From an uncultured bacterium (GTDB lineage Bacteria; Verrucomicrobiota; Kiritimatiellia; CAIKKV01; CALHGX01), in assembly GCA_938031185.1 (NCBI GenBank), contig CALHGX010000018.1:1-64000 (forward strand): 64,000 nucleotides of DNA. Reading direction: 5' to 3'. Below the pieces are notes generated by a model that was not told the origin of the DNA, ran no database searches, and worked only from the letters and a program-made list of their open reading frames with translations. Positions 1 through 10,047 of the stretch are shown here, one piece after another (position 1 is the first letter of the stretch; each line of letters begins with the position of its first letter). Both the position numbers and the translations under genes were made by a program.

Positions 1-671
1 CGCTCCGGCCGAATCCGATCCAATCCGGCCCAAATCCCCTCGATCGAACCGAACTCATTCAGCAGTCGCGCCGCCGTTTTTGGCCCCACTCCCGGAACCC
101 CAGGAATGTTGTCCACCGCATCCCCCGCCAACGCCAGCCAATCCACAATCTGTCCCGGCGCAACGCCGGTTCGGGCGCGCACCGCTTCTTCGTCCACCCG
201 ATCCCGGATCGAACCGGGCGTGACCAGCCACGTGCTTCCGCCCACGATCTGATACAAATCCTTGTCGCTCGTCGCGATGAGCGTCTCCGCCCCCTCCGGT
301 TGCGCCCACGCCGCCAGCGAGGCCATCACATCGTCGGCCTCCTGCTCTTCAACGCGCAGCCGGCACAGTCGCGCGCAATCGAGATATTCCTCCACCGCCG
401 GAAATTGCCGGCGCAGATCGTCCGGCATAGGCGGTCGTTGCGCCTTGTACTCCGGCAACAGCGCCAGCCGTTCCGCGGGCGGCCCGCCGTCGAATACCAC
501 CGCAACATGGGTGGGCTGCCACGCATCGGTCAACTGGCGCATCATACGAATGAAGCCGAACACGGCGTTGGTCGGCACTCCGGAACGCGCACGCAATGAG
601 GGTATCGCAAAAAAGGCCCGATAGACCAACCCGGAGGCGTCCACCACCAACAACCGTCTTGCCGCGGACAT
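1..671 (-). CDS. polA: 5'-3' exonuclease domain of DNA polymerase I type (3' end off window)
   Basis: The first 223 residues of a FEN/PolI-type 5'-nuclease are visible and the gene continues past the left edge. It starts with VVDASGLVYRAFF. It carries the metal-binding motifs EADDVMASL and ATSDKDLYQIV and the helix-hairpin-helix DNIPGVPGVGPKTA, all typical of the 5'-nuclease that removes RNA primers and flaps. The ATG at 671 lies three bases after the secretin stop, so it probably sits at the end of the pilus-like operon. Whether polymerase domains follow (true polA) or it is a stand-alone exonuclease cannot be seen here, so the symbol is tentative. Confidence 0.85.
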   Translation of the reverse strand, partial: MSAARRLLVVDASGLVYRAFFAIPSLRARSGVPTNAVFGFIRMMRQLTDAWQPTHVAVVFDGGPPAERLALLPEYKAQRPPMPDDLRRQFPAVEEYLDCARLCRLRVEEQEADDVMASLAAWAQPEGAETLIATSDKDLYQIVGGSTWLVTPGSIRDRVDEEAVRARTGVAPGQIVDWLALAGDAVDNIPGVPGVGPKTAARLLNEFGSIEGIWAGLDRIRPE

Positions 672-674
672 GCC

Positions 675-3560
675 TTACTCGGCGGACGCTTTCGCGGTGT
701 CCACCACCGTTCCCTCCGGCTGCCGGATCAGCTTGCCGGCCGGATCCACCAGCCGCGCCGTCACAAAGATGAGCAGGTTCTTTTTCTGACTGTACTCCGA
801 CTTGCTCCGGAACAGCGCACCTATCAGCGGGAGATCGCCCAAAACGGGTATCTTGTCGTTCACCTTCTTCAAATCTTCCGTGATCAGTCCGCCCATGACC
901 ACCGTCGCACCGTCATAGATGCTGATCTGCGTGGTCACCGTGCGCACATGGAAAAACGGCTGCGGCATGTTGAGCTGCTGTTCCGAACCGTCCGCCCGAC
1001 GGATGGTCGAGCCGTACTGCTGCCACGTCGGCTCCGTCACCACCGACGGCGTCAACTGCAAATTGATCACGCTGCCGTCCGGATTCACCTCGGGCAGCAC
1101 TTGAAGGATCACGCCGACTTCCCGGGTTTGGAACGATTGCGGCACCACCACCGTCTCCTGCACGATGTTGCCGTCCCCTGTGGCCGAAGACTGGATCTGG
1201 CCCCCCTGCACTTCAAACTCGGTGGGGTAAATATACTCCGTCACCACCTTCATGACGGCTTCCTGGCCCGAGCGCGTCATCACCTTCGGCGCCGAAAGCA
1301 GGTCGGCATTCCCGTTCTGCTCCAGCGCGTGCAGCACAACAGACAGTTCCGGATTGGTCAGAACGCCTGACAGGGACAGAATCCGCCCCAGCGTCCCTTG
1401 GCCGCCGCCTTTGGCCTGGATCGTCCCGCCTTCCGCCGCGGGGCTCCAGAAACGCAGCCCTCGGGTAAAGCCGCCGCCGGCCGAGTTCGCGTCCATCTGA
1501 ATGCGAGGCCGACTGGAGACAGGCGCATACGGCGAACCTTTCTTCATGGCCAGTTCCCAGTTGTCGTTCAGCAGCCACTGCAGCCCCATTTCCTGCAAAT
1601 CGCTTTCGTTGACCTCGACGAAGCGCGCCTCGATTTCCACCTGCTTTGGAATGACGTTGAGTTCCGCCAGGAGCTTCTCGAACAGCGCCAGATTCTCGGC
1701 GGTATTGGCCACAATGACCTTGCCGATGGCGCTGTTGTAAGTAATCGAGGCGTTGCGCGGGAACGTCATGCCCATCCGCTCGAAGTACGCCTTCAGGTCC
1801 GGAATACCGGCATCCATCTGCGTCATTTCCATCTGGATGAAGTCGCGCCCGCCGATCTGCCGGCTGGGCGCGGGCGTCCCCATCGCCGCGCTGGTTTCCC
1901 GCACGCGCTCGATGAACGTCGGCTCCACCGGGTACATTTTGACGACGATATCCCCGGCGGCGTAGTCCGGCGGCACAATCATCACGATGTTGCCTTCGAT
2001 CCGCTGCTTGAGATTCGCCACCTGGCAGATCAGCGCCAGCGCGGTGCGCAGAGAAATATAACGGGCCGTGAACGTGATTTCGTAGGTCGGCGTCGCCGCG
2101 CTCCGGCTGGCGGGAGCCGGCGCAAACGGATCGCTTGGCATCGGGGCTTCCACCGCCGGCGCGCCCCCGGCCCCGAGATTCAATATGATATTGACACCCT
2201 TTTTGGCGGTATCGGGTTCCTCTTTGTCCGCTTCAATGCTGGCCTGATTGAGAAACCGCACCACGTCGTGAATGTTCGCCTGACGAAAATCCAGCTCGGG
2301 GATGATGATCCGGTCCATTTTGTCGAGCAACGGCTGCTCCGACGTCTCAATGCCCCGCTTGACTTCCGGCGGCTTGATTTCCTTGTAGTCCGGCGGATTC
2401 CACTTGTCGCGCACGTCGCTGGTCATCTGCATGGCCGTCGCATGGCGCTCGGTCGTGCTGGTGGAATACTTGCGATCCGAGAGTTCCTTGAGATACCGCA
2501 TGGCTTCTGGATTTTCCGGCTCCAGCGCCAGCACCGCTTCAAAGCTGGCCCGGGCGCGATCGAAATCCCGCGCCGCCATGTAGCGACCCCCGTTGGCCAT
2601 CAGGTCGCGCACCCGCGCCTTTCGCTGCGCAGCGGCCTCGCGCATCGTTCGGGCTTCTTTCTGCTCGGGTGTCAGGGCCGCTTCGGCGCGCGCCACCTCA
2701 TCCACCCGCGCCTTGAGCCGTCGCAGGCCCGGATGATCCGGATACCGTTCCAGCGCCTTGGCCGCCGCCTCTCCCGCTTCCTTCTGCTGCCCCGCCTTCA
2801 GCAGCTCCAGCGCCGCCCCATACTCCGCCTCGGCCGCCCGCAACAAAGCCCGTTTCCGGATCTCGGCTGTCGCCGGCCGTAACGGCAGCGTCTTCAAGCC
2901 CTCATGGTACAGCTCCGCGGCCCTCGCGAAGTTCCGCGCCTTGAAGGCCTCATCCGCCTGCGCGATTTTCCGCGTCGCGTCCACTTCGCGCTGCTGGCGG
3001 CGCACCTCCTCCTGGCTCGCCAGCATGCGCGCCAGCTTCTCCCGCTCTTCGCCTCCGAGTTTGTCGATGCGAACTTCCGGCGGGACGGCCGGCGCGGGAG
3101 CCAAGTCCAAACCAAGCGCCCCTTCCGCCGCCTCCGCTTCGGCAACCGGCGCCACTGGCGCGGCGGGGGCCGGCACCTTTCGAGGCTCCAAGCCCGGCGC
3201 GGGCTCTTGCGCCACAGCAGGCGCCGCGACCGGTTCGGGCTCCGGCTCCAGTTCCACTGGCGGCAAATCGCCCAGATCCAATTCGGGGGGCGGCAACGCC
3301 GGCGCCGGCTCCGCCACGGGCGCAACCCCCAGAGCGTCCTCCGCCTCCTCCTCGGCCGGCATGGGCTCGGCCTGCCCCGCCCCACCGACGTCCACCCGGA
3401 TAACATCTTCTTCCGCCGCCGGCGCCACAATCGCCGCCTTATCGTCCGCGTCTACGGCGGGCAAATCCCATTGCGCCCAAAGCCCCGCGGCCGCGATCCC
3501 CAGCGCCAGCACCGAAAGCGACGTCAAACGGAATTGCTTGGTCATGAAAGCGCTCTCCAT
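675..3560 (-). CDS. Secretin, Amuc_1098/PilQ-like outer-membrane channel
   Basis: About 961 residues. A signal peptide (MTKQFRLTSLSVLALGIAAAG region) is followed by a long Pro/Ala/Glu-rich segment (about 35-180), coiled coil and TPR-like repeats (about 180-370), an STN/secretin N-domain region (about 410-620) and a C-terminal secretin domain with VVMGGLITEDLKKVNDKIPVLGDLP, the conserved secretin signature. Secretins form the outer-membrane ring of type IV pili and type II secretion systems. The ATG at 3560 has GAGGGG nine bases upstream. An ATG at 3596 overlaps the previous stop as ATGA and is the alternative start. Last pilus gene of the operon. The N-terminal TPR extension is what Verrucomicrobia homologues (Amuc_1098 type) show. 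Confidence 0.9.
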   Translation of the reverse strand: MESAFMTKQFRLTSLSVLALGIAAAGLWAQWDLPAVDADDKAAIVAPAAEEDVIRVDVGGAGQAEPMPAEEEAEDALGVAPVAEPAPALPPPELDLGDLPPVELEPEPEPVAAPAVAQEPAPGLEPRKVPAPAAPVAPVAEAEAAEGALGLDLAPAPAVPPEVRIDKLGGEEREKLARMLASQEEVRRQQREVDATRKIAQADEAFKARNFARAAELYHEGLKTLPLRPATAEIRKRALLRAAEAEYGAALELLKAGQQKEAGEAAAKALERYPDHPGLRRLKARVDEVARAEAALTPEQKEARTMREAAAQRKARVRDLMANGGRYMAARDFDRARASFEAVLALEPENPEAMRYLKELSDRKYSTSTTERHATAMQMTSDVRDKWNPPDYKEIKPPEVKRGIETSEQPLLDKMDRIIIPELDFRQANIHDVVRFLNQASIEADKEEPDTAKKGVNIILNLGAGGAPAVEAPMPSDPFAPAPASRSAATPTYEITFTARYISLRTALALICQVANLKQRIEGNIVMIVPPDYAAGDIVVKMYPVEPTFIERVRETSAAMGTPAPSRQIGGRDFIQMEMTQMDAGIPDLKAYFERMGMTFPRNASITYNSAIGKVIVANTAENLALFEKLLAELNVIPKQVEIEARFVEVNESDLQEMGLQWLLNDNWELAMKKGSPYAPVSSRPRIQMDANSAGGGFTRGLRFWSPAAEGGTIQAKGGGQGTLGRILSLSGVLTNPELSVVLHALEQNGNADLLSAPKVMTRSGQEAVMKVVTEYIYPTEFEVQGGQIQSSATGDGNIVQETVVVPQSFQTREVGVILQVLPEVNPDGSVINLQLTPSVVTEPTWQQYGSTIRRADGSEQQLNMPQPFFHVRTVTTQISIYDGATVVMGGLITEDLKKVNDKIPVLGDLPLIGALFRSKSEYSQKKNLLIFVTARLVDPAGKLIRQPEGTVVDTAKASAE

Positions 3561-3592
3561 GTGAATGATCCCCTCGGGGGATCCGGCCCGGT

Positions 3593-4594
3593 TCATCCGC
3601 CCGGTTTCTCCTCCCCACGCGCGCGCCCGATCCAGACATCCTTTCGGCGGATCGGGTCACCTATTAGTACACGCCGTCCGACAGTGTCAACACCTTTCAC
3701 CTCATATTCCACGCCCCGCAGATCGAACTTGCCGCCGACCCTCGTCTCGCGCCGCGTGTTGTCCAGGTCCACACGCAGCGCCACCTCGTACTCGTCATGG
3801 GGCACGATGTGGTCCTGAATCAGCCGAATGAGGCGCCCATTGCGACGGAGCGTTAGCACCGGCTTGCCGTCCACCCCCTTGTCCTCATGCGAAAACACCT
3901 CAAACCCTTCGACCTCCTTGCCGAGCTCGGCGAAATAAGTCCGATCGCCTGCTCGCAGGTTGATCTGGAAATACGTCTTGCCCGCCATTCGGTTGACGCC
4001 CTTGAACACAAGCGCGAACGGTATAGGCCGGATGTCTTCCACCAGCAGTTTCATCACCGGCGGCGGGAAATCTTTCGGATCCGTCGGATTGGTTCCGTAC
4101 TCGAACTCCTCCCGGTTCGTGAAGCCGTCGCCGTCCGCATCCTCGAGCGCGTTGCCGGGATCACGCAAATTCAAGCCGTACTGCCTGGCCCAGGCGCGGT
4201 ACTTGTCCTCCGGGTCTGTCACATCCGCGGGCTGTTCCGCCGCGCAGCGCGGAAACGGACACTTGACGGCATCGTAGGGAATCGGACGCCCGCATTTCAC
4301 GCAGGCCACCCGCAGTTCCGGCGTCAGGATGCGCCGCCCGCCTTCCGCCAGATGAAAGGGCTGCTCCAATTCGCGCCGGGCCGTCTCGAAGAGCCCCAGA
4401 TCGGGCGGCGCGACGCCCTCGTGCGCGGGGCGCAGTCGCTGCAAACTTTCGTCGAACGCCCGCTGGCGCGCCGCCAGCAGGTTCGCATGCACCGCCAGCC
4501 ACAGCACGGACAGCAGCAGCGCCACCAGAATCACGACAGCGCACAACTTGTCGTACGACTGCCGCAGCCAACCCGCGATGCTCCCCGCGCTCAT
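3593..4594 (-). CDS. Amuc_1099-like pilus-system membrane protein
   Basis: 333 residues, no named domain recognised over the full length. One N-terminal membrane helix (about residues 17-37, VVILVALLLSVLWLAV) is followed by a zinc-ribbon-like segment with CVKC and CPFPRC, a calcium-binding type-3-repeat-like segment (DADGDGFTNREEFEYGTNP), and a beta-rich C-terminal half. Start and stop overlap both neighbours by ATGA (4591-4594 and 3593-3596), so translation is coupled to the Amuc_1100-like gene and the secretin. In Akkermansia the equivalent slot between secretin and Amuc_1100 is Amuc_1099. The assignment rests on position and topology rather than strong sequence identity. Confidence 0.72.
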   Translation of the reverse strand: MSAGSIAGWLRQSYDKLCAVVILVALLLSVLWLAVHANLLAARQRAFDESLQRLRPAHEGVAPPDLGLFETARRELEQPFHLAEGGRRILTPELRVACVKCGRPIPYDAVKCPFPRCAAEQPADVTDPEDKYRAWARQYGLNLRDPGNALEDADGDGFTNREEFEYGTNPTDPKDFPPPVMKLLVEDIRPIPFALVFKGVNRMAGKTYFQINLRAGDRTYFAELGKEVEGFEVFSHEDKGVDGKPVLTLRRNGRLIRLIQDHIVPHDEYEVALRVDLDNTRRETRVGGKFDLRGVEYEVKGVDTVGRRVLIGDPIRRKDVWIGRARGEEKPGG

Positions 4595-5592
4595 GCGCCT
4601 TCCTCCAGCAAATCCTCCTGGCCCGGAGGACTTTTCCGGAACTGGTACACTTCCAACTCCACCCGCGCGCTCAACGGCAGATCGCGCCCCGTCAGGATGC
4701 GCTCGTCGCGCGCCACGGAGCCGTCCGCCGACGCGGCCGCCGTTTTCGCCTCGTCGCGCCCGCCCGCGCGTCCACCCTCCGCCCCGACGTCCAACCCTCG
4801 CTCCGACGAGTCCAGCCGCAATGTCTTCACCACGACAAACAGGCGGTGTTCCGCCATCCGGTTCAGCGCTTCGAGCAACGCCGCTTCCCGCCCCGTGAAC
4901 TCGATCTTGAACCGCCATACCCCGTACAAGGCATCGCCCTCGATAAGCCCCGCCTGCGGGTTGCGGGTGTTCAGCGCCGAAGCGGACGTTGCCGCCACGC
5001 CCGCCGCCGCGCCGCGGCGCCGCTCGACCGGCGCCGCCGTCTCCGGTGCCGCTTCGCCCTCGAACTCCTCCCGCCCGACGCCCGTCAACGCGCTGATCCG
5101 CGCCTCGAACAGCGAAGACACCAGTGCCTGCATGATCGTCAATTGCTGCGTCAGCCGCATTACGTCCGGCGAATTCGGCAGATTGCCCGTCATGTATCGG
5201 CCGAATCCAAACGCCATATCTTCCGGCACCGAAACCCCTCGTTCCCGCGCCGCGTTCAGCAATGATTGGCGGGTGTCCCAGAACTGGGCCATGAAACGGG
5301 CGGGACTTTGCTCGATTTCCGGCGTCTGCCCCTCGGCCAGCCGCGCCAACAACCCGGCCAGTTCGCGCCGCAGTGCCGCCTCCTTGCGTTGCTCTTCCTT
5401 CACATTCTCCTCGGACGGAAACGGATTGCGCGCATACAGGCGCTCGAGTTCGGCGCGAGCGCCGTTCAGGCCCGCCTCCGCCCGCCGGTACGCCAGCCAG
5501 CCCCGCGCCAGCAACGCCACGGCCGCAACACACAAGAGCGCAACCGCCCCTGCGGCCGCGCCGATCCACACCCGTCTTCGCATGGCGGTCAT
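4591..5592 (-). CDS. Amuc_1100-like pilus-associated membrane protein (PilO-like)
   Basis: 333 residues. An N-terminal membrane helix (about 10-30) is followed by a coiled coil (about 35-90), a globular region, a low-complexity Ala/Arg/Glu linker, a second globular beta-alpha part (YGVWRFKIEFTGREAALLEALNRM), then a charged linker and a final strand-rich segment. This matches the architecture of Amuc_1100, thought to be a PilO/PilN-like alignment-subcomplex protein in the inner membrane facing the periplasm. It lies 16 bp downstream of the PilM-like gene and overlaps the next gene by ATGA. Known of the family: Amuc_1100 is an abundant envelope protein in Akkermansia. The homology here is inferred from order and architecture. 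Confidence 0.75.
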   Translation of the reverse strand: MTAMRRRVWIGAAAGAVALLCVAAVALLARGWLAYRRAEAGLNGARAELERLYARNPFPSEENVKEEQRKEAALRRELAGLLARLAEGQTPEIEQSPARFMAQFWDTRQSLLNAARERGVSVPEDMAFGFGRYMTGNLPNSPDVMRLTQQLTIMQALVSSLFEARISALTGVGREEFEGEAAPETAAPVERRRGAAAGVAATSASALNTRNPQAGLIEGDALYGVWRFKIEFTGREAALLEALNRMAEHRLFVVVKTLRLDSSERGLDVGAEGGRAGGRDEAKTAAASADGSVARDERILTGRDLPLSARVELEVYQFRKSPPGQEDLLEEGA

Positions 5593-5608
5593 TCGACGAT
5601 CCTCGCTG

Positions 5609-7288
5609 CTACCGCGCCGCCATGCCGGCGGCCGGTTCCCCGGCGCCCGTCGCTCGCAGCGGCGCCTCCAAGATAAACTCCATCGCGTAGTCCGTGCCCT
5701 TGACCGGACGGATCAACTTGATCTCCGCGGCGTCCGCGAAATGCCGGCAGGACTTGAGCGCCTGGGCCAGTTCGCTGACTTTTTCATGGCTGACCTTGTC
5801 CGAAAACGCGCGGCCGTGAATCTCGATGCGCTCCGCCGCGACCGCCGCCTCGCCCGCCGGCGTTTCCGCCACAACCGGCCGCAATGCCGTCAGCCACGCC
5901 CCCGCAGGCAGGCGATCGCGAATGTCGCCGATGATCTCCGCCCAGCGCGTGCGTGATCGAACCAGCCCGGCCAAATCCGCCGCCTGGGCCAGCACCGCCT
6001 CCTGTTCGCGCTGTATCGCGCTCAAGCGCACGTTAGGGGCCGCCAGCGCCGCCACCATGGCTTCCGTCTTCCGCCGGCGCTCCTCCTTCGCCGAACGCAT
6101 GCGCAGCGTGTACACCCAGAAAACCATCATGATCATCGCCAGCCCCACGGCCGCCAACCCCAGGAAAGGCAGGCGCCGCATAAAGGTCCGCCGCGCCGCC
6201 ATCTCGGGCGGCAGCAAGTTAATCTCCACCGGACACGACAGCGCGCGCCGCAGCCCCAGGCCCACCACTTCCCCCAGCAGGTGAATGTCCCGCCCGATCT
6301 CCTCGGCGGAAATGTTCTCCCCGACCGCGACGTTCCGGAACGGGTTAAGATATTCCACGTTGATTTTCAGCTTGTCCTTGAGGAACGTGTCCGTGTGCGG
6401 CATCACCGACGCTCCGCCCGCCAGCAAAGCCATGGTCGGTTGGCTGCCCCCCTGCTGGCTGCGATAGAAATTGATCGTCCGGCTGATTTCGGCGTGCAGC
6501 CGGGTCATGACGTTGCGGATGATCTTCGAGGCCCGGTCCGCCACGCCAACCTCATGCCCCTCATACGCGCCGCCGAACCCGACGAACCCGTGCGCCCGCT
6601 TGAGCTGCTCGGCATCGGCGTACGGCAGATCGAACTCCTTCATCAGGTCCTTGGTCATCGCAATGCCGGCCACCGGTATGCTGCGGCTGAAAATCCGGTC
6701 GCCTTCCACGAAAACGATGTTCGTGGTGCGCGCCCCTATGTCCAGAATCATGGCGCAGCCGGGCAGGTCCGCGTAGTTGTAACGCACCGCGTTGTAAAGC
6801 GCAAACGGCGACACATCCACCGTTTCAGGCTCAAGCCCGGCGGCTTCCACGCAGGCCATCCAGTTTCGCACGAAATCGTTCTTGACCGCCACCAGCATCA
6901 CGCTGAGCCCGTCCGCCTCCTGCCCCACGATCTGGTAGTCCCACACCACCTCGTCAATCGGAAAAGGCACGTTCTGCTGCGCTTCGTACCGGACAATCTG
7001 CGGAATCTTTTCGGACGCCACCGGCGGCAGTTTCACGTAGCGCGGGAACACGGCCTGGCCCGAAATGGATACCATCACCGGCCCCGGCGTAAAGCCCTTG
7101 GTGCGCAACAGTTCGTGAATACCGGAAACGACGAACGCGGAGGCGTCCGCCTCGCTGTCGGGATCCGCGCCCAGCGACGTCGTTGCGTAGCGCGTCAGCT
7201 CCAGCCCGCCGCGCAACAGCGCGAACTCCGCCATCGCGAGCTTGCTCGCCCCGATGTCGAGCGTCAGCACCCGGTCGGATCCGAACAT
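5609..7288 (-). CDS. PilM-like ATPase fused to a PilN-like membrane domain (Amuc_1101-like)
   Basis: 559 residues. The N-terminal 350 residues are a PilM/FtsA-type actin-fold domain: LTLDIGASKLAMAEF (phosphate 1), AMILDIGARTTNIVFVEGD (phosphate 2), LLAGGASVMP (adenosine). The signature FPRYVKLPPVASEKIPQIV is typical of PilM. A membrane helix follows at about 378-398 (FLGLAAVGLAMIMMVFWVY), then a coiled coil and a periplasmic PilN-like domain, so PilM and PilN appear fused. The protein would link cytoplasmic pilus machinery to the Amuc_1100-like protein. AGGAGG sits four bases before the ATG. First core gene after the small Amuc_1102-like gene. Confidence 0.88.
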   Translation of the reverse strand: MFGSDRVLTLDIGASKLAMAEFALLRGGLELTRYATTSLGADPDSEADASAFVVSGIHELLRTKGFTPGPVMVSISGQAVFPRYVKLPPVASEKIPQIVRYEAQQNVPFPIDEVVWDYQIVGQEADGLSVMLVAVKNDFVRNWMACVEAAGLEPETVDVSPFALYNAVRYNYADLPGCAMILDIGARTTNIVFVEGDRIFSRSIPVAGIAMTKDLMKEFDLPYADAEQLKRAHGFVGFGGAYEGHEVGVADRASKIIRNVMTRLHAEISRTINFYRSQQGGSQPTMALLAGGASVMPHTDTFLKDKLKINVEYLNPFRNVAVGENISAEEIGRDIHLLGEVVGLGLRRALSCPVEINLLPPEMAARRTFMRRLPFLGLAAVGLAMIMMVFWVYTLRMRSAKEERRRKTEAMVAALAAPNVRLSAIQREQEAVLAQAADLAGLVRSRTRWAEIIGDIRDRLPAGAWLTALRPVVAETPAGEAAVAAERIEIHGRAFSDKVSHEKVSELAQALKSCRHFADAAEIKLIRPVKGTDYAMEFILEAPLRATGAGEPAAGMAAR

Positions 7289-7296
7289 CGTTCCTC

Positions 7297-7947
7297 CTAT
7301 TTCACGACCTCATGGTCGTCGTAGTTCACGAACGCGAAGGGCGTCTGCGACTTGCTGAGGAGATACCCGTCCCGGACCGCCAAACGCGGATTTTTCCACC
7401 ATTCGGCCGGCAGCGTTTTGCCGCCCGCCAGCCGCCCGTCCGTCGCCTGCGCCACCATCTGGCCCTGATACAAAAACTCGACGGCCACCGCCACCACGTC
7501 GCCAAACCGCTCCAGCGCCGCCGGCCGCAAGTACATGGCAACCTGCCGCCCGCGGCCCCCGGCCACATCCACGCACACCACGCTGCCCCGGCACAAGGTG
7601 TAGTCAGCCTGCTCGCCGCGCCGGCGGTCATGCAGCAACGCGTAGAACTGCACCGAGAGCTCGTCCAGCCACTCCGGCTCGGCATCGAACAGCGCCGCCA
7701 CCTCCGCCCACGTCCGCGGCGGCATCCGTCCCGCTGGAGCCGACGTCGTGTATTGAGGCGTCCGCATCAAGGCCCGCGGCCCAAACCCCGTCACGCTGCG
7801 CACCCGCACCACCGATGCCGGTCGTGCCTCTGCGCGCGCGGCCGCCCCCGCGCCCTGCCCCGCGGCCGGCGTGCCGGCCATCGTTGCCGCCAGCAAACCC
7901 GCCGCGCAAATTATCGGCCCAATCGTTCCGCGCCTGGTCGGTTGCAT
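7297..7947 (-). CDS. Exported protein in the Amuc_1102 position, pilus operon leader gene
   Basis: About 216 residues with a signal peptide (GPIICAAGLLAATMAGTPAAGQG). The mature part has a disordered Ala/Arg-rich stretch and then a compact beta-rich domain of about 150 residues (SVVRVRSVTGFGPRALMRTP to the C terminus KSQTPFAFVNYDDHEVVK). No domain is recognised from sequence alone. It is the first gene of the pilus-like operon, 8 bp before the PilM-like gene, which is where Akkermansia has the pilin-like Amuc_1102. I infer a periplasmic or surface role in that apparatus. ATG 7947 follows a GGGGGG run. ATG 7959 is the alternative start. Confidence 0.65.
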   Translation of the reverse strand: MQPTRRGTIGPIICAAGLLAATMAGTPAAGQGAGAAARAEARPASVVRVRSVTGFGPRALMRTPQYTTSAPAGRMPPRTWAEVAALFDAEPEWLDELSVQFYALLHDRRRGEQADYTLCRGSVVCVDVAGGRGRQVAMYLRPAALERFGDVVAVAVEFLYQGQMVAQATDGRLAGGKTLPAEWWKNPRLAVRDGYLLSKSQTPFAFVNYDDHEVVK

Positions 7948-8001
7948 GTCGCCCCCCATGAAAAAAGGACGGGGCCATCCCGCCCGCTATGAAAATGCCG
8001 C

Positions 8002-8029
8002 AGTATAGGGCGCGCCGATGAAAATGCAA
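8002..8029 (-). promoter_or_regulatory. Sigma-70-like promoter of the pilus operon
   Basis: On the minus strand, TTGCAT (8029-8024) is separated by 16 bases from TATACT (8007-8002), about 55-60 bases before the first start codon of the pilus-like operon. It is back to back with the promoter at 8083-8111. Confidence 0.6.
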
Positions 8030-8082
8030 AAGGAAAAAGCGGTGGCGCCATGCCCGGCCGAACAAAAAAAGAAAAACGGGGA

Positions 8083-8111
8083 TTGACGCCCGCGTTAAGA
8101 ACGCATACATT
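8083..8111 (+). promoter_or_regulatory. Sigma-70-like promoter of the secreted repeat protein
   Basis: TTGACG (8083-8088), a 17-base spacer and TACATT (8106-8111), 43 bases before the start codon at 8155. It diverges from the pilus operon promoter. Confidence 0.55.
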
Positions 8112-8154
8112 CTATACCGGATATGGCGGCAATGCCATTGAAAGGAGCAGAACA

Positions 8155-10047
8155 ATGAAAAAGGCTTTGGTCTTGGCTGTTGCATGGGTCGGCGGCGTTC
8201 TTTCCGGCTGGGCGCAATCGCCCACCATCGCCATCACTAACAGCCCCGCAACCGTGCCGTACGCCGTCACGCAGTACGACTTGGGGGGCTCATCCGCATA
8301 TGTCGTCGGCGAAATCAACTGGACCAACGCGCTCACGGGCGAGTTTGGCACAACGCCCGCGGACGCCAACTGGATCATCACGGGCATCAGCCTGGGCGTG
8401 GGCGACAACTTCATTGACGTCAGCGGCACGAACGAGACGGGCGTCGCCACCAACGACAGCATCACCATCACGCGCGCCGCCTTCGCCAACACTATCCCCT
8501 ACATCGAGCCGTTCGAAGGCTACGCCAACGGCCAGTCCCTGCTCGAGACCAATCCGCCCAGCGGCTGGTCCGGCAGCGCCCCCGAAGACGCGCTCTTCGT
8601 CACCAACCTCAGCTACTTGGCCCCATACTACGTTCTACAAACGAATCACACCCGCGTGGCGGTGTTTTCGGGCGTCATTACGAACCACATCAGTCCGCTT
8701 TCGCCGGTTCAAAGCAATGTGGCAATTCATGTGATGCTACAGCCCGGTCGCTCCGAAGTGCTGCCCACGAATCCGGCGAACTCTCAAATGGCCCTCTGCG
8801 TGAACTCCAACGGTTCGCTGGCCGTGTGGCACGGCATCTACACGAACTTCGTCCTCGAGGCCGATTGGGCCGTCTTGGACGATGTCGGCCTGGTAATCGA
8901 AACCTCACAGTGGATCCGCCTCACCATCAACCTCGACTACCTCTCCGACACAGATACCGGCCTCAATTACTTCCAGATCATGGTGGATGACAAAGGGCCC
9001 CTCACCAACGCCATGGCCTACGAAACCCCGTCGGTGGCCGCCGCGCAGCCGGGCACTTGGTTCCTTTGCGCCGATGACACCGTCCCCGAATGGGTCTCCG
9101 CCATTGTCCTACAAGGCTCCGGCGCTCTCGACGACCTCGTCGTGGACGTGGAAGGCAGCAGCTACCCGCTTGTGCCGAATTCCGTCACCGTCGTGGCCAC
9201 CGCCGCCGTCAATGGCGTCATTTCACCCGCCGGCAACGTCACCGTTCCCTGGTACGGCGAAACGAACTTCACCATCACCGCCAACAGCGGCTATCGCATC
9301 CTCGATATAGTGACCAACGGCATAAGCATCGGCTGGACCTTTGATGACGCCAGCACGGAAACCAACTTCGTCTGGACGAACATCACCGGCTACGACACGA
9401 TGATTCTGGCCCTGTTCACCAATCAGCCGGCCAGCTCGTACACCATCACCGCGAGCGCGGGCGCCAACGGCAGCATCGCGCCGAGCGGTGCCGTCGTCGT
9501 GCCAGCGGGCGGAGAGACGAACTTCGTCGTCACGGCGGACCTGCATTACCGCATTGCGGACATCCAGACCAACAGCCAGTCCCTCGGCTGGACGTTCGAC
9601 AACGACACGCTCACGACCAACTTCGTCTGGAGCAACGTCTCCGACGACGGCACCATCTACGCGGCCTTCACCGACCGGCTCACCGGCAACGGCACACCGC
9701 ACGCCTGGCTGGCCTCGTTCGGACTCGCAACGGACGATTCCACCAACGGCAGCATGAGCGACCTCGATCAAGACGGCCTCAAGGCTTGGGAAGAATTTGT
9801 CTGCAAGACGCTGCCCAACGACCCCAACTCCGTGCTCAAGGTCGTGGGCCAGGCCCGTGTGGGAACCGACAGCGTGCTACAGTGGCTGAGCGAGTCGGGT
9901 CTGATCTACAACATTGAAGGGGCGACCAACTTGTTGACGGCCAGTTGGCAGTTCATTACGAACGTGTCGGCGACCCCGCCCACCAACACCTGGACACTCC
10001 CGCTGGACGCGCTCCAGAAGTTCTACCGGGTAATGGTCTCGAACTAG
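8155..10047 (+). CDS. Secreted protein with two InlB-B-like repeats and an FYR-type C-terminal tail
   Basis: 630 residues. Signal peptide MKKALVLAVAWVGGVLSGWAQ, with AAAGGAG nine to ten bases before the ATG. A lectin/concanavalin-like region covers about 125-340 (YIEPFEGYANGQSLLETNPP opening). Two homologous repeats of about 80 residues (about 343-425 and 426-510, each with a GETNF core, GWTFD and TNFVW) resemble the divergent InlB B-repeat. A calcium-binding-like DLDQDGLKAWEEFVC segment follows, then a C-terminal domain ending LQKFYRVMVSN. That tail recurs in the gene remnant at 42996-43226 and looks like a cell-surface sorting or scaffold domain. Single-gene unit with its own promoter and terminator. 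Role likely extracellular adhesion or structure, unproven. Confidence 0.8.
   Translation: MKKALVLAVAWVGGVLSGWAQSPTIAITNSPATVPYAVTQYDLGGSSAYVVGEINWTNALTGEFGTTPADANWIITGISLGVGDNFIDVSGTNETGVATNDSITITRAAFANTIPYIEPFEGYANGQSLLETNPPSGWSGSAPEDALFVTNLSYLAPYYVLQTNHTRVAVFSGVITNHISPLSPVQSNVAIHVMLQPGRSEVLPTNPANSQMALCVNSNGSLAVWHGIYTNFVLEADWAVLDDVGLVIETSQWIRLTINLDYLSDTDTGLNYFQIMVDDKGPLTNAMAYETPSVAAAQPGTWFLCADDTVPEWVSAIVLQGSGALDDLVVDVEGSSYPLVPNSVTVVATAAVNGVISPAGNVTVPWYGETNFTITANSGYRILDIVTNGISIGWTFDDASTETNFVWTNITGYDTMILALFTNQPASSYTITASAGANGSIAPSGAVVVPAGGETNFVVTADLHYRIADIQTNSQSLGWTFDNDTLTTNFVWSNVSDDGTIYAAFTDRLTGNGTPHAWLASFGLATDDSTNGSMSDLDQDGLKAWEEFVCKTLPNDPNSVLKVVGQARVGTDSVLQWLSESGLIYNIEGATNLLTASWQFITNVSATPPTNTWTLPLDALQKFYRVMVSN

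What the first reader, a model, noticed from the sequence alone, without database searches (positions are those of the whole stretch)
675..8029. Amuc_1098-1102-like pilus apparatus in a compact operon
Five genes in a fixed order (Amuc_1102-like, PilM/PilN fusion, Amuc_1100-like, Amuc_1099-like, secretin), mostly with ATGA overlaps, reproduce the Akkermansia cluster. Two parts are unlike textbook type IV pili: the PilM-PilN fusion, and the Amuc_1099-like protein, which has a zinc ribbon plus a calcium-binding-like repeat. The secretin carries about 350 extra N-terminal residues. No PilB/PilT motor or PilC gene is in the window. A 5'-nuclease gene trails the operon.
Basis: partly seen in the sequence, partly recalled or inferred. 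Interest (0 to 1): 0.6.

Follow-up and report, generated by a model that had tools for sequence, protein, structure and literature searches.

The report
Akkermansia-type pilus alignment-and-secretin operon
This is the envelope-spanning part of a type IV pilus machine already known from the gut bacterium Akkermansia, here in a distant relative; gene neighbourhoods in related genomes show which motor and pilin genes, stored elsewhere in the same genome, most likely drive it.

Summary
Five minus-strand genes (675-7959) match, in order, the NCBIfam models Amuc_1102, 1101, 1100, 1099 and 1098 (secretin). Only 1099 passes its curated cut-off, so this is a divergent set. All five occur in this order in 35 of 37 adequately long loci sampled across the class (Kiritimatiellia, inferred) and through much of Verrucomicrobiota, Akkermansia-like genomes included. 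It is a known kind, published as the Akkermansia pilus/"MUL2" cluster.

What I add is the motor. In family f24 of the same class the operon directly follows pilB-pilT-pilB-pilC; in a lineage of another class pilB-pilB-pilT-pilC directly follows it. The best matches of these ATPases here are the pilB-pilT-pilB trio on contig C9. PilC and the pilins match a cluster on C42. So the machine is apparently complete but split over three loci. This assignment is inferred from synteny and best matches, not shown by experiment.

The PilM-PilN fusion is confirmed. Amuc_1099 models as transmembrane helix, zinc-ribbon-like module, TSP3 module and two beta domains, with weak structural likeness to PilP. The trailing 5'-nuclease belongs to a housekeeping 5'-nuclease-coaE-rho neighbourhood. 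Amuc_1102 has a Sec-type signal and no prepilin motif, so it is unlikely to be a classical pilin.

The parts
7297..7959 (-). Amuc_1102-like protein (220 aa; start possibly 7947), Ig-like beta-sandwich, Sec-type signal, no prepilin motif
   Evidence: NCBIfam NF042424 51.4 bits, cut-off 55; 7DSZ by phmmer E 1.4e-4 and by Foldseek of the AlphaFold model E 1.3e-11, prob 1.00
5609..7288 (-). Amuc_1101-like PilM-PilN fusion (559 aa)
   Evidence: NF045709 518.5 bits; PF11104 PilM_2 residues 10-348; profile A2 matches M. xanthus PilM at columns 1-350 (E 9.8e-64) and M. xanthus PilN at columns 355-477 (E 1.1e-10)
4591..5592 (-). Amuc_1100-like inner-membrane protein, proposed PilO position
   Evidence: NF038287 101.5 bits, cut-off 180; no sequence-level match to PilO found
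3593..4594 (-). Amuc_1099-like protein (333 aa): TM helix, Cys4 zinc-ribbon-like module (C98, C101, C112, C117), TSP3 module, two beta domains; proposed PilP position
   Evidence: NF042425 61.5 bits, above cut-off 50; PF18884 TSP3; AlphaFold model pLDDT 89.8; Foldseek PilP 2y4y prob 0.99, TM 0.60 on target, but E 0.21
675..3596 (-). Amuc_1098-like outer-membrane secretin (PilQ type) with N-terminal TPR extension (up to 973 aa; start 3596, 3560 or about 3545)
   Evidence: NF042912 463 bits; PF00263 secretin residues 745-939 and TPR matches near residues 326-357 (numbering from start 3560); nearest solved structure by sequence is a PilQ-family secretin, 6w6m
3..671 (-). 5'-nuclease gene, truncated by the contig end; neighbouring housekeeping gene, probably not part of the machine
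   Evidence: PF02739/PF01367; stand-alone, mostly 287-321 aa, in relatives and followed there by coaE and rho in several loci

Best explanation
The operon encodes the cytoplasmic cup, inner-membrane alignment complex and outer-membrane channel of a type IV pilus machine. Amuc_1101 is PilM fused to PilN; Amuc_1100 probably takes the PilO place and Amuc_1099 the PilP place; Amuc_1098 is the PilQ secretin; Amuc_1102 is an accessory exported Ig-like subunit. In this genome the machine is most likely driven by the pilB1-pilT-pilB2 trio on contig C9 (about 199.4-204 kb) and uses the PilC and pilin cluster on contig C42 (about 53.6-61.3 kb). Shown: gene identities, conserved order, and physical linkage to orthologous-looking motors in two other lineages. 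Inferred: the functional partnership in this genome, the PilO and PilP roles, and the making and retracting of a filament.
For: Family matches for all five genes. PilM and PilN profile matches to M. xanthus structures. Conserved five-gene order in 35 of 37 long-enough class loci and in genomes of other classes including Akkermansia-like L234. Direct linkage gatB-pilB-pilT-pilB-pilC-1102... in L199, L200 and L201, with pilins plus a GspK-sized gene just upstream of 1102 in L199 and L203. Direct linkage 1102-1101-1100-1099-1098-1098'-pilB-pilB-pilT-pilC in L248/L254, another class. In both cases each linked ATPase has as best match in this genome a member of the C9 trio: 62/69/61% and 51/60/52% identity, clearly ahead of the other PilB or PilT paralogues. 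Linked PilC best matches C42:54150 (50%), and linked pilins best match the C42 cluster, though weakly. In other phylum members the PilB1-PilB2-PilT-PilC quartet recurs as a unit (L287, L288), and in the Akkermansia-like genome the only two PilB-type ATPases found are PilB1-PilB2, next to a PilC.
Against: The genome holds four other secretins and further PilB/PilC sets, so partner swapping is possible. The C42 pilin matches are weak (E 1e-6 to 1e-3) and driven partly by the common N-terminal pilin helix. Motor assignment rests on BLAST best hits, not a tree. PilO and PilP roles have only weak (1099) or no (1100) homology support. No filament or expression data.
Confidence: 0.78

Rival explanations
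1. The operon is a type II secretion or glycan-uptake apparatus rather than a pilus: the same envelope complex exports proteins or helps import polymers with a short pseudopilus.
For: Motor ATPases score about equally with GspE and PilB models, and PilC with GspF. The linked minor pilins include a GspK-sized protein, and the C42 counterpart has a weak GspK match. In Akkermansia the cluster was recovered as a mucin utilisation locus (PMC13174399, PMC12418764).
Against: The linked motors include a true PilT-family retraction ATPase (461 bits, cut-off 319), typical of retractile type IVa pili and not of T2SS. The nearest solved secretin by sequence is a PilQ-family protein. Separate loci with GspD-type N0 domains exist in this genome.
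Confidence: 0.15
2. The operon works with a different motor in this genome, for example the orphan pilB-pilC pairs at C9:91-94 kb or C24:26-29 kb.
For: Those pairs have no adjacent secretin in the fetched regions.
Against: They are consistently second best or lower (about 43-46% for PilB1) to motors physically linked to the operon in two lineages, against 51-62% for the C9 trio members.
Confidence: 0.12
3. Amuc_1102 is the pilus subunit itself (an archaeal-type pilin), so the five genes alone form the filament.
For: [quoted passage not shown]
Against: In the alignment of 34 relatives the N-terminus looks like an ordinary Sec signal (often ...AQ after the hydrophobic stretch) and no class III prepilin site is evident. 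Foldseek with the model found 7DSZ and then only generic Ig-like folds, no pilin among the top 50. True prepilins occur elsewhere, on C42 and directly upstream of 1102 in L199 and L203.
Confidence: 0.08

Closest known systems
Akkermansia muciniphila Amuc_1098-Amuc_1102 cluster (PilQ cluster; MUL2)
   Same: Same five families, same order, PilM-PilN fusion, TPR-bearing secretin (PMC4960237, PMC5332112, PMC13174399)
   Different: Diverged: four of five proteins fall below the curated cut-offs. Here a 5'-nuclease follows; in Akkermansia-like L234 coaE and rho follow directly
Type IVa pilus PilM/PilN/PilO/PilP/PilQ with PilB, PilT, PilC
   Same: PilM and PilN domains, PilQ-type secretin, and PilB/PilT/PilC linked in relatives
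   Different: PilM and PilN fused; two PilB paralogues; PilP-like protein carries zinc-ribbon-like and TSP3 modules; PilO place filled by a protein with no detectable PilO sequence match; extra Amuc_1102 subunit
Type II secretion system
   Same: Secretin, GspE/GspF-like motor parts, GspK-sized minor pilin in linked clusters
   Different: PilT-family retraction ATPase linked; PilM-type cytoplasmic protein; no GspC or GspL match above cut-off

Membership tests
Amuc_1098-1102 pilus/MUL2 cluster | All five Amuc family proteins present | tested here: met
   Each is the best NCBIfam match of its gene; only Amuc_1099 exceeds the curated cut-off
Amuc_1098-1102 pilus/MUL2 cluster | Fixed order 1102-1101-1100-1099-1098 on one strand | tested here: met
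   Window; same in Akkermansia-like L234 and 35 of 37 class loci
Amuc_1098-1102 pilus/MUL2 cluster | Scores above NCBIfam equivalog cut-offs | tested here: not met
   Met for 1099 only; 1098, 1100, 1101 and 1102 below cut-off. No genome of the class passes for 1101 or 1100, so this marks divergence of the class
Amuc_1098-1102 pilus/MUL2 cluster | PilM-PilN fusion in Amuc_1101 | tested here: met
Type IVa pilus | PilQ-type secretin | tested here: met
   Best solved match by sequence is a PilQ-family secretin, although GspD and PilQ models score similarly
Type IVa pilus | Alignment complex PilM, PilN, PilO, PilP | tested here: inconclusive
   PilM and PilN met; PilP weak structural match; PilO not detected
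Type IVa pilus | PilB, PilT, PilC and pilins in the genome | tested here: met
Type IVa pilus | Retractile filament on the surface | not testable with these tools
   Needs microscopy

The most novel reading that the evidence does not exclude
The Amuc cluster plus a dedicated PilB1-PilB2-PilT-PilC quartet is one ancestral, phylum-wide type IV pilus subtype of Verrucomicrobiota. It would have a two-PilB extension motor, one paralogue with a c-di-GMP-binding motif, and a PilP-like periplasmic protein whose zinc-ribbon-like and calcium-binding-like modules stabilise or gate the connection between inner-membrane complex and secretin.
Probability: 0.3. Interest if true: 0.6.

Novelty: new member of a known kind. 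Interest (0 to 1): 0.4.

Why it matters
Amuc_1100 is a much-studied Akkermansia protein, yet in the papers read here the machine its gene belongs to is described as a pilus-like or secretion-like locus with no motor named. The neighbourhoods in relatives point to specific PilB1/PilB2/PilT/PilC partners, present in Akkermansia-like genomes too, which makes the pilus assignment testable by gene removal. Within the papers I could search I found no report of this link, but many subscription papers are not held, so I do not claim priority.

Tried and rejected
PolA reading of the trailing gene: I first noted it as the N-terminus of DNA polymerase I; relatives show a stand-alone gene of about 290 aa, so this was dropped. 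A functional link between the 5'-nuclease and the pilus (for example DNA uptake) was considered and disfavoured, because the following genes where seen are coaE and rho and coaE-rho also follow the cluster in Akkermansia-like L234 without the nuclease. Co-occurrence of PilT with the operon across the class was uninformative because PilT is nearly universal (143 of 146 above cut-off). PilO identity of the 1100-like protein: profile search of the PDB, hhalign against the PilO candidate of another locus and Pfam gave nothing usable. PilP by sequence: hhalign with the C24 candidate and the PDB profile search failed. PilT/PilB paralogues at C64, C45 and C33 were not followed further.
Full report
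What is there. Five minus-strand ORFs fill 675-7959. NCBIfam names them, 5' to 3' of the operon, Amuc_1102, Amuc_1101 (PilM-like), Amuc_1100, Amuc_1099 and Amuc_1098 (secretin). Only the 1099 match exceeds its curated cut-off; the others are clear but divergent. Junctions are tight: an 8-base gap, a 16-base gap, one certain ATGA overlap and one possible. The window starts at base 1 of contig C18 of a 2.47-Mb, 89%-complete genome.

More than chance. I took 49 further loci from other families of the same class and labelled genes with profiles grown from the window's own proteins. Of 37 loci, the window included, with enough flanking DNA, 35 carry all five genes in the same order and strand; the two exceptions, L070 and L114, lack a detectable 1102. 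In the class, 129 of 146 genomes have an Amuc_1100 match and 145 of 146 some Amuc_1101-profile match, most with E below 1e-90; weak ones among these may be ordinary PilM. In the phylum 254 of 289 sampled genomes match Amuc_1101 at E 1e-30 or better. Named relatives are mostly labelled Kiritimatiellae, Lentisphaerae or Verrucomicrobia; I infer class Kiritimatiellia, but the genome itself is unnamed. Several lineages outside the class carry two or three tandem secretin genes after 1099.

The parts. Amuc_1101: a profile of 21 relatives matches Myxococcus PilM over columns 1-350 and Myxococcus PilN over columns 355-477, so the fusion is real. It is normal for the family, since an Akkermansia-like genome encodes the same fusion at 612 aa. 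Amuc_1098: a PilQ-like secretin with an N-terminal TPR region, as reported for Akkermansia PilQ (PMC4960237). Amuc_1099: the alignment of 39 relatives shows an N-terminal helix, a Cys4 motif and a DxDxDG-type TSP3 module. The four cysteines are each kept in 31 to 37 of 39 sequences, and six sequences lack the first pair or more, so zinc binding cannot be essential everywhere. AlphaFold gives pLDDT 89.8. Foldseek's only pilus-related entry among the top 50 is the PilP domain 2y4y (prob 0.99, target TM 0.60, E 0.21) at rank 23, behind unrelated beta proteins of lower probability; this is suggestive, not proof. Zinc and calcium binding are inferred from sequence only. Amuc_1102: modelled at pLDDT 85.6; it matches the Amuc_1102 crystal structure 7DSZ (E 1.3e-11) and otherwise generic Ig-like folds. 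Its N-terminus resembles a Sec signal, not a prepilin leader. Amuc_1100: family match only; PilO identity not demonstrated.

The motor. In family f24 of the same class (L200, L201) the order is gatB, pilB, pilT, pilB, pilC, then 1102-1101-1100-1099-1098, all on one strand; in L199 two prepilins and a GspK-sized gene sit between pilC and 1102, and in L203 pilins sit directly upstream of 1102. In L248/L254, from another class, the operon continues 1098-1098'-pilB-pilB-pilT-pilC. NCBIfam confirms the PilT as PilT/PilU family; the PilBs and PilC lie near GspE/PilB and GspF/PilC models. In the window genome, linked PilB1, PilT and PilB2 from f24 best match C9:202262 (62%), C9:201402 (69%) and C9:199444 (61%), a contiguous pilB-pilT-pilB trio; next-best paralogues are at about 40-46%. 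The other-class quartet gives the same three best matches. PilC best matches C42:54150 (50%), which heads a cluster of seven pilin-type genes to which the f24 pilins also best match, weakly. Further members, L287 and L288, carry pilB1-pilB2-pilT-pilC as a unit away from the operon. An Akkermansia-like genome (G162) has PilB1-PilB2-PilC together as its only PilB pair, plus two PilT-type genes. It has two secretins, one being Amuc_1098.

Mechanism, with status. Shown by sequence: PilM-N, secretin, motors, PilC and prepilins exist in this genome. Shown by synteny: orthologous-looking motors travel with this operon in two lineages. Inferred: PilM-N recruits the motor and PilC at the inner membrane; 1100 and 1099 form the periplasmic connection in the PilO and PilP places; the secretin passes the filament; PilB1/PilB2 extend and PilT retracts. 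One of the two PilBs in the window genome has an above-cut-off c-di-GMP-binding motif (40.4 against 38), which suggests signal control.

Surroundings. The 5'-nuclease follows the secretin in 23 of 37 class loci. It is followed in several by coaE and rho; an Akkermansia-like locus has coaE and rho directly after the secretin, and the ISME J paper draws dephospho-CoA kinase and rho beside MUL2 (PMC13174399). I read this as inherited neighbourhood.

Known or new. The cluster is published for Akkermansia as a pilus cluster (PMC5332112, PMC4960237) and as MUL2, with conservation across Verrucomicrobiales reported and less in Chthoniobacterales (PMC13174399). The present locus is a divergent member. 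The added points are presence across a further class, the motor and pilin assignment by linkage, and the doubt about 1102 as a pilin. I found no earlier statement of the motor link in the papers searched, but that library lacks most subscription journals.

Noticed in passing
window 8050-10047 (+): Divergent gene upstream of 1102 encodes a secreted-looking 665-aa protein whose C-terminal part weakly matches the 1099 profile (24 bits), apparently through a TSP3-like module; similar divergent neighbours occur in L097, L105, L116 and L117.
   Followed up: partly
G000 contig C24, 44.6-55.8 kb (L062): A second, more textbook pilus-like locus: prepilins, PilM, PilN-size, PilO/GspM-like genes, a 1,856-aa protein with TSP3 matches, and a secretin.
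   Followed up: partly
L239, L241, L242, L244, L246, L247, L248, L249, L250: Two or three tandem secretin paralogues end the operon in several lineages outside the class; why is unknown.
   Followed up: no
Genomes of family f22 (G016, G041, G052, G081, G108, G141): Well-assembled genomes of one genus lack the Amuc operon markers yet keep a PilT-family gene.
   Followed up: no
L114 and L115 (family f32): A variant with shorter PilM-N (about 460 aa), shorter secretin (733-749 aa) and no zinc-ribbon cysteines in 1099.
   Followed up: no
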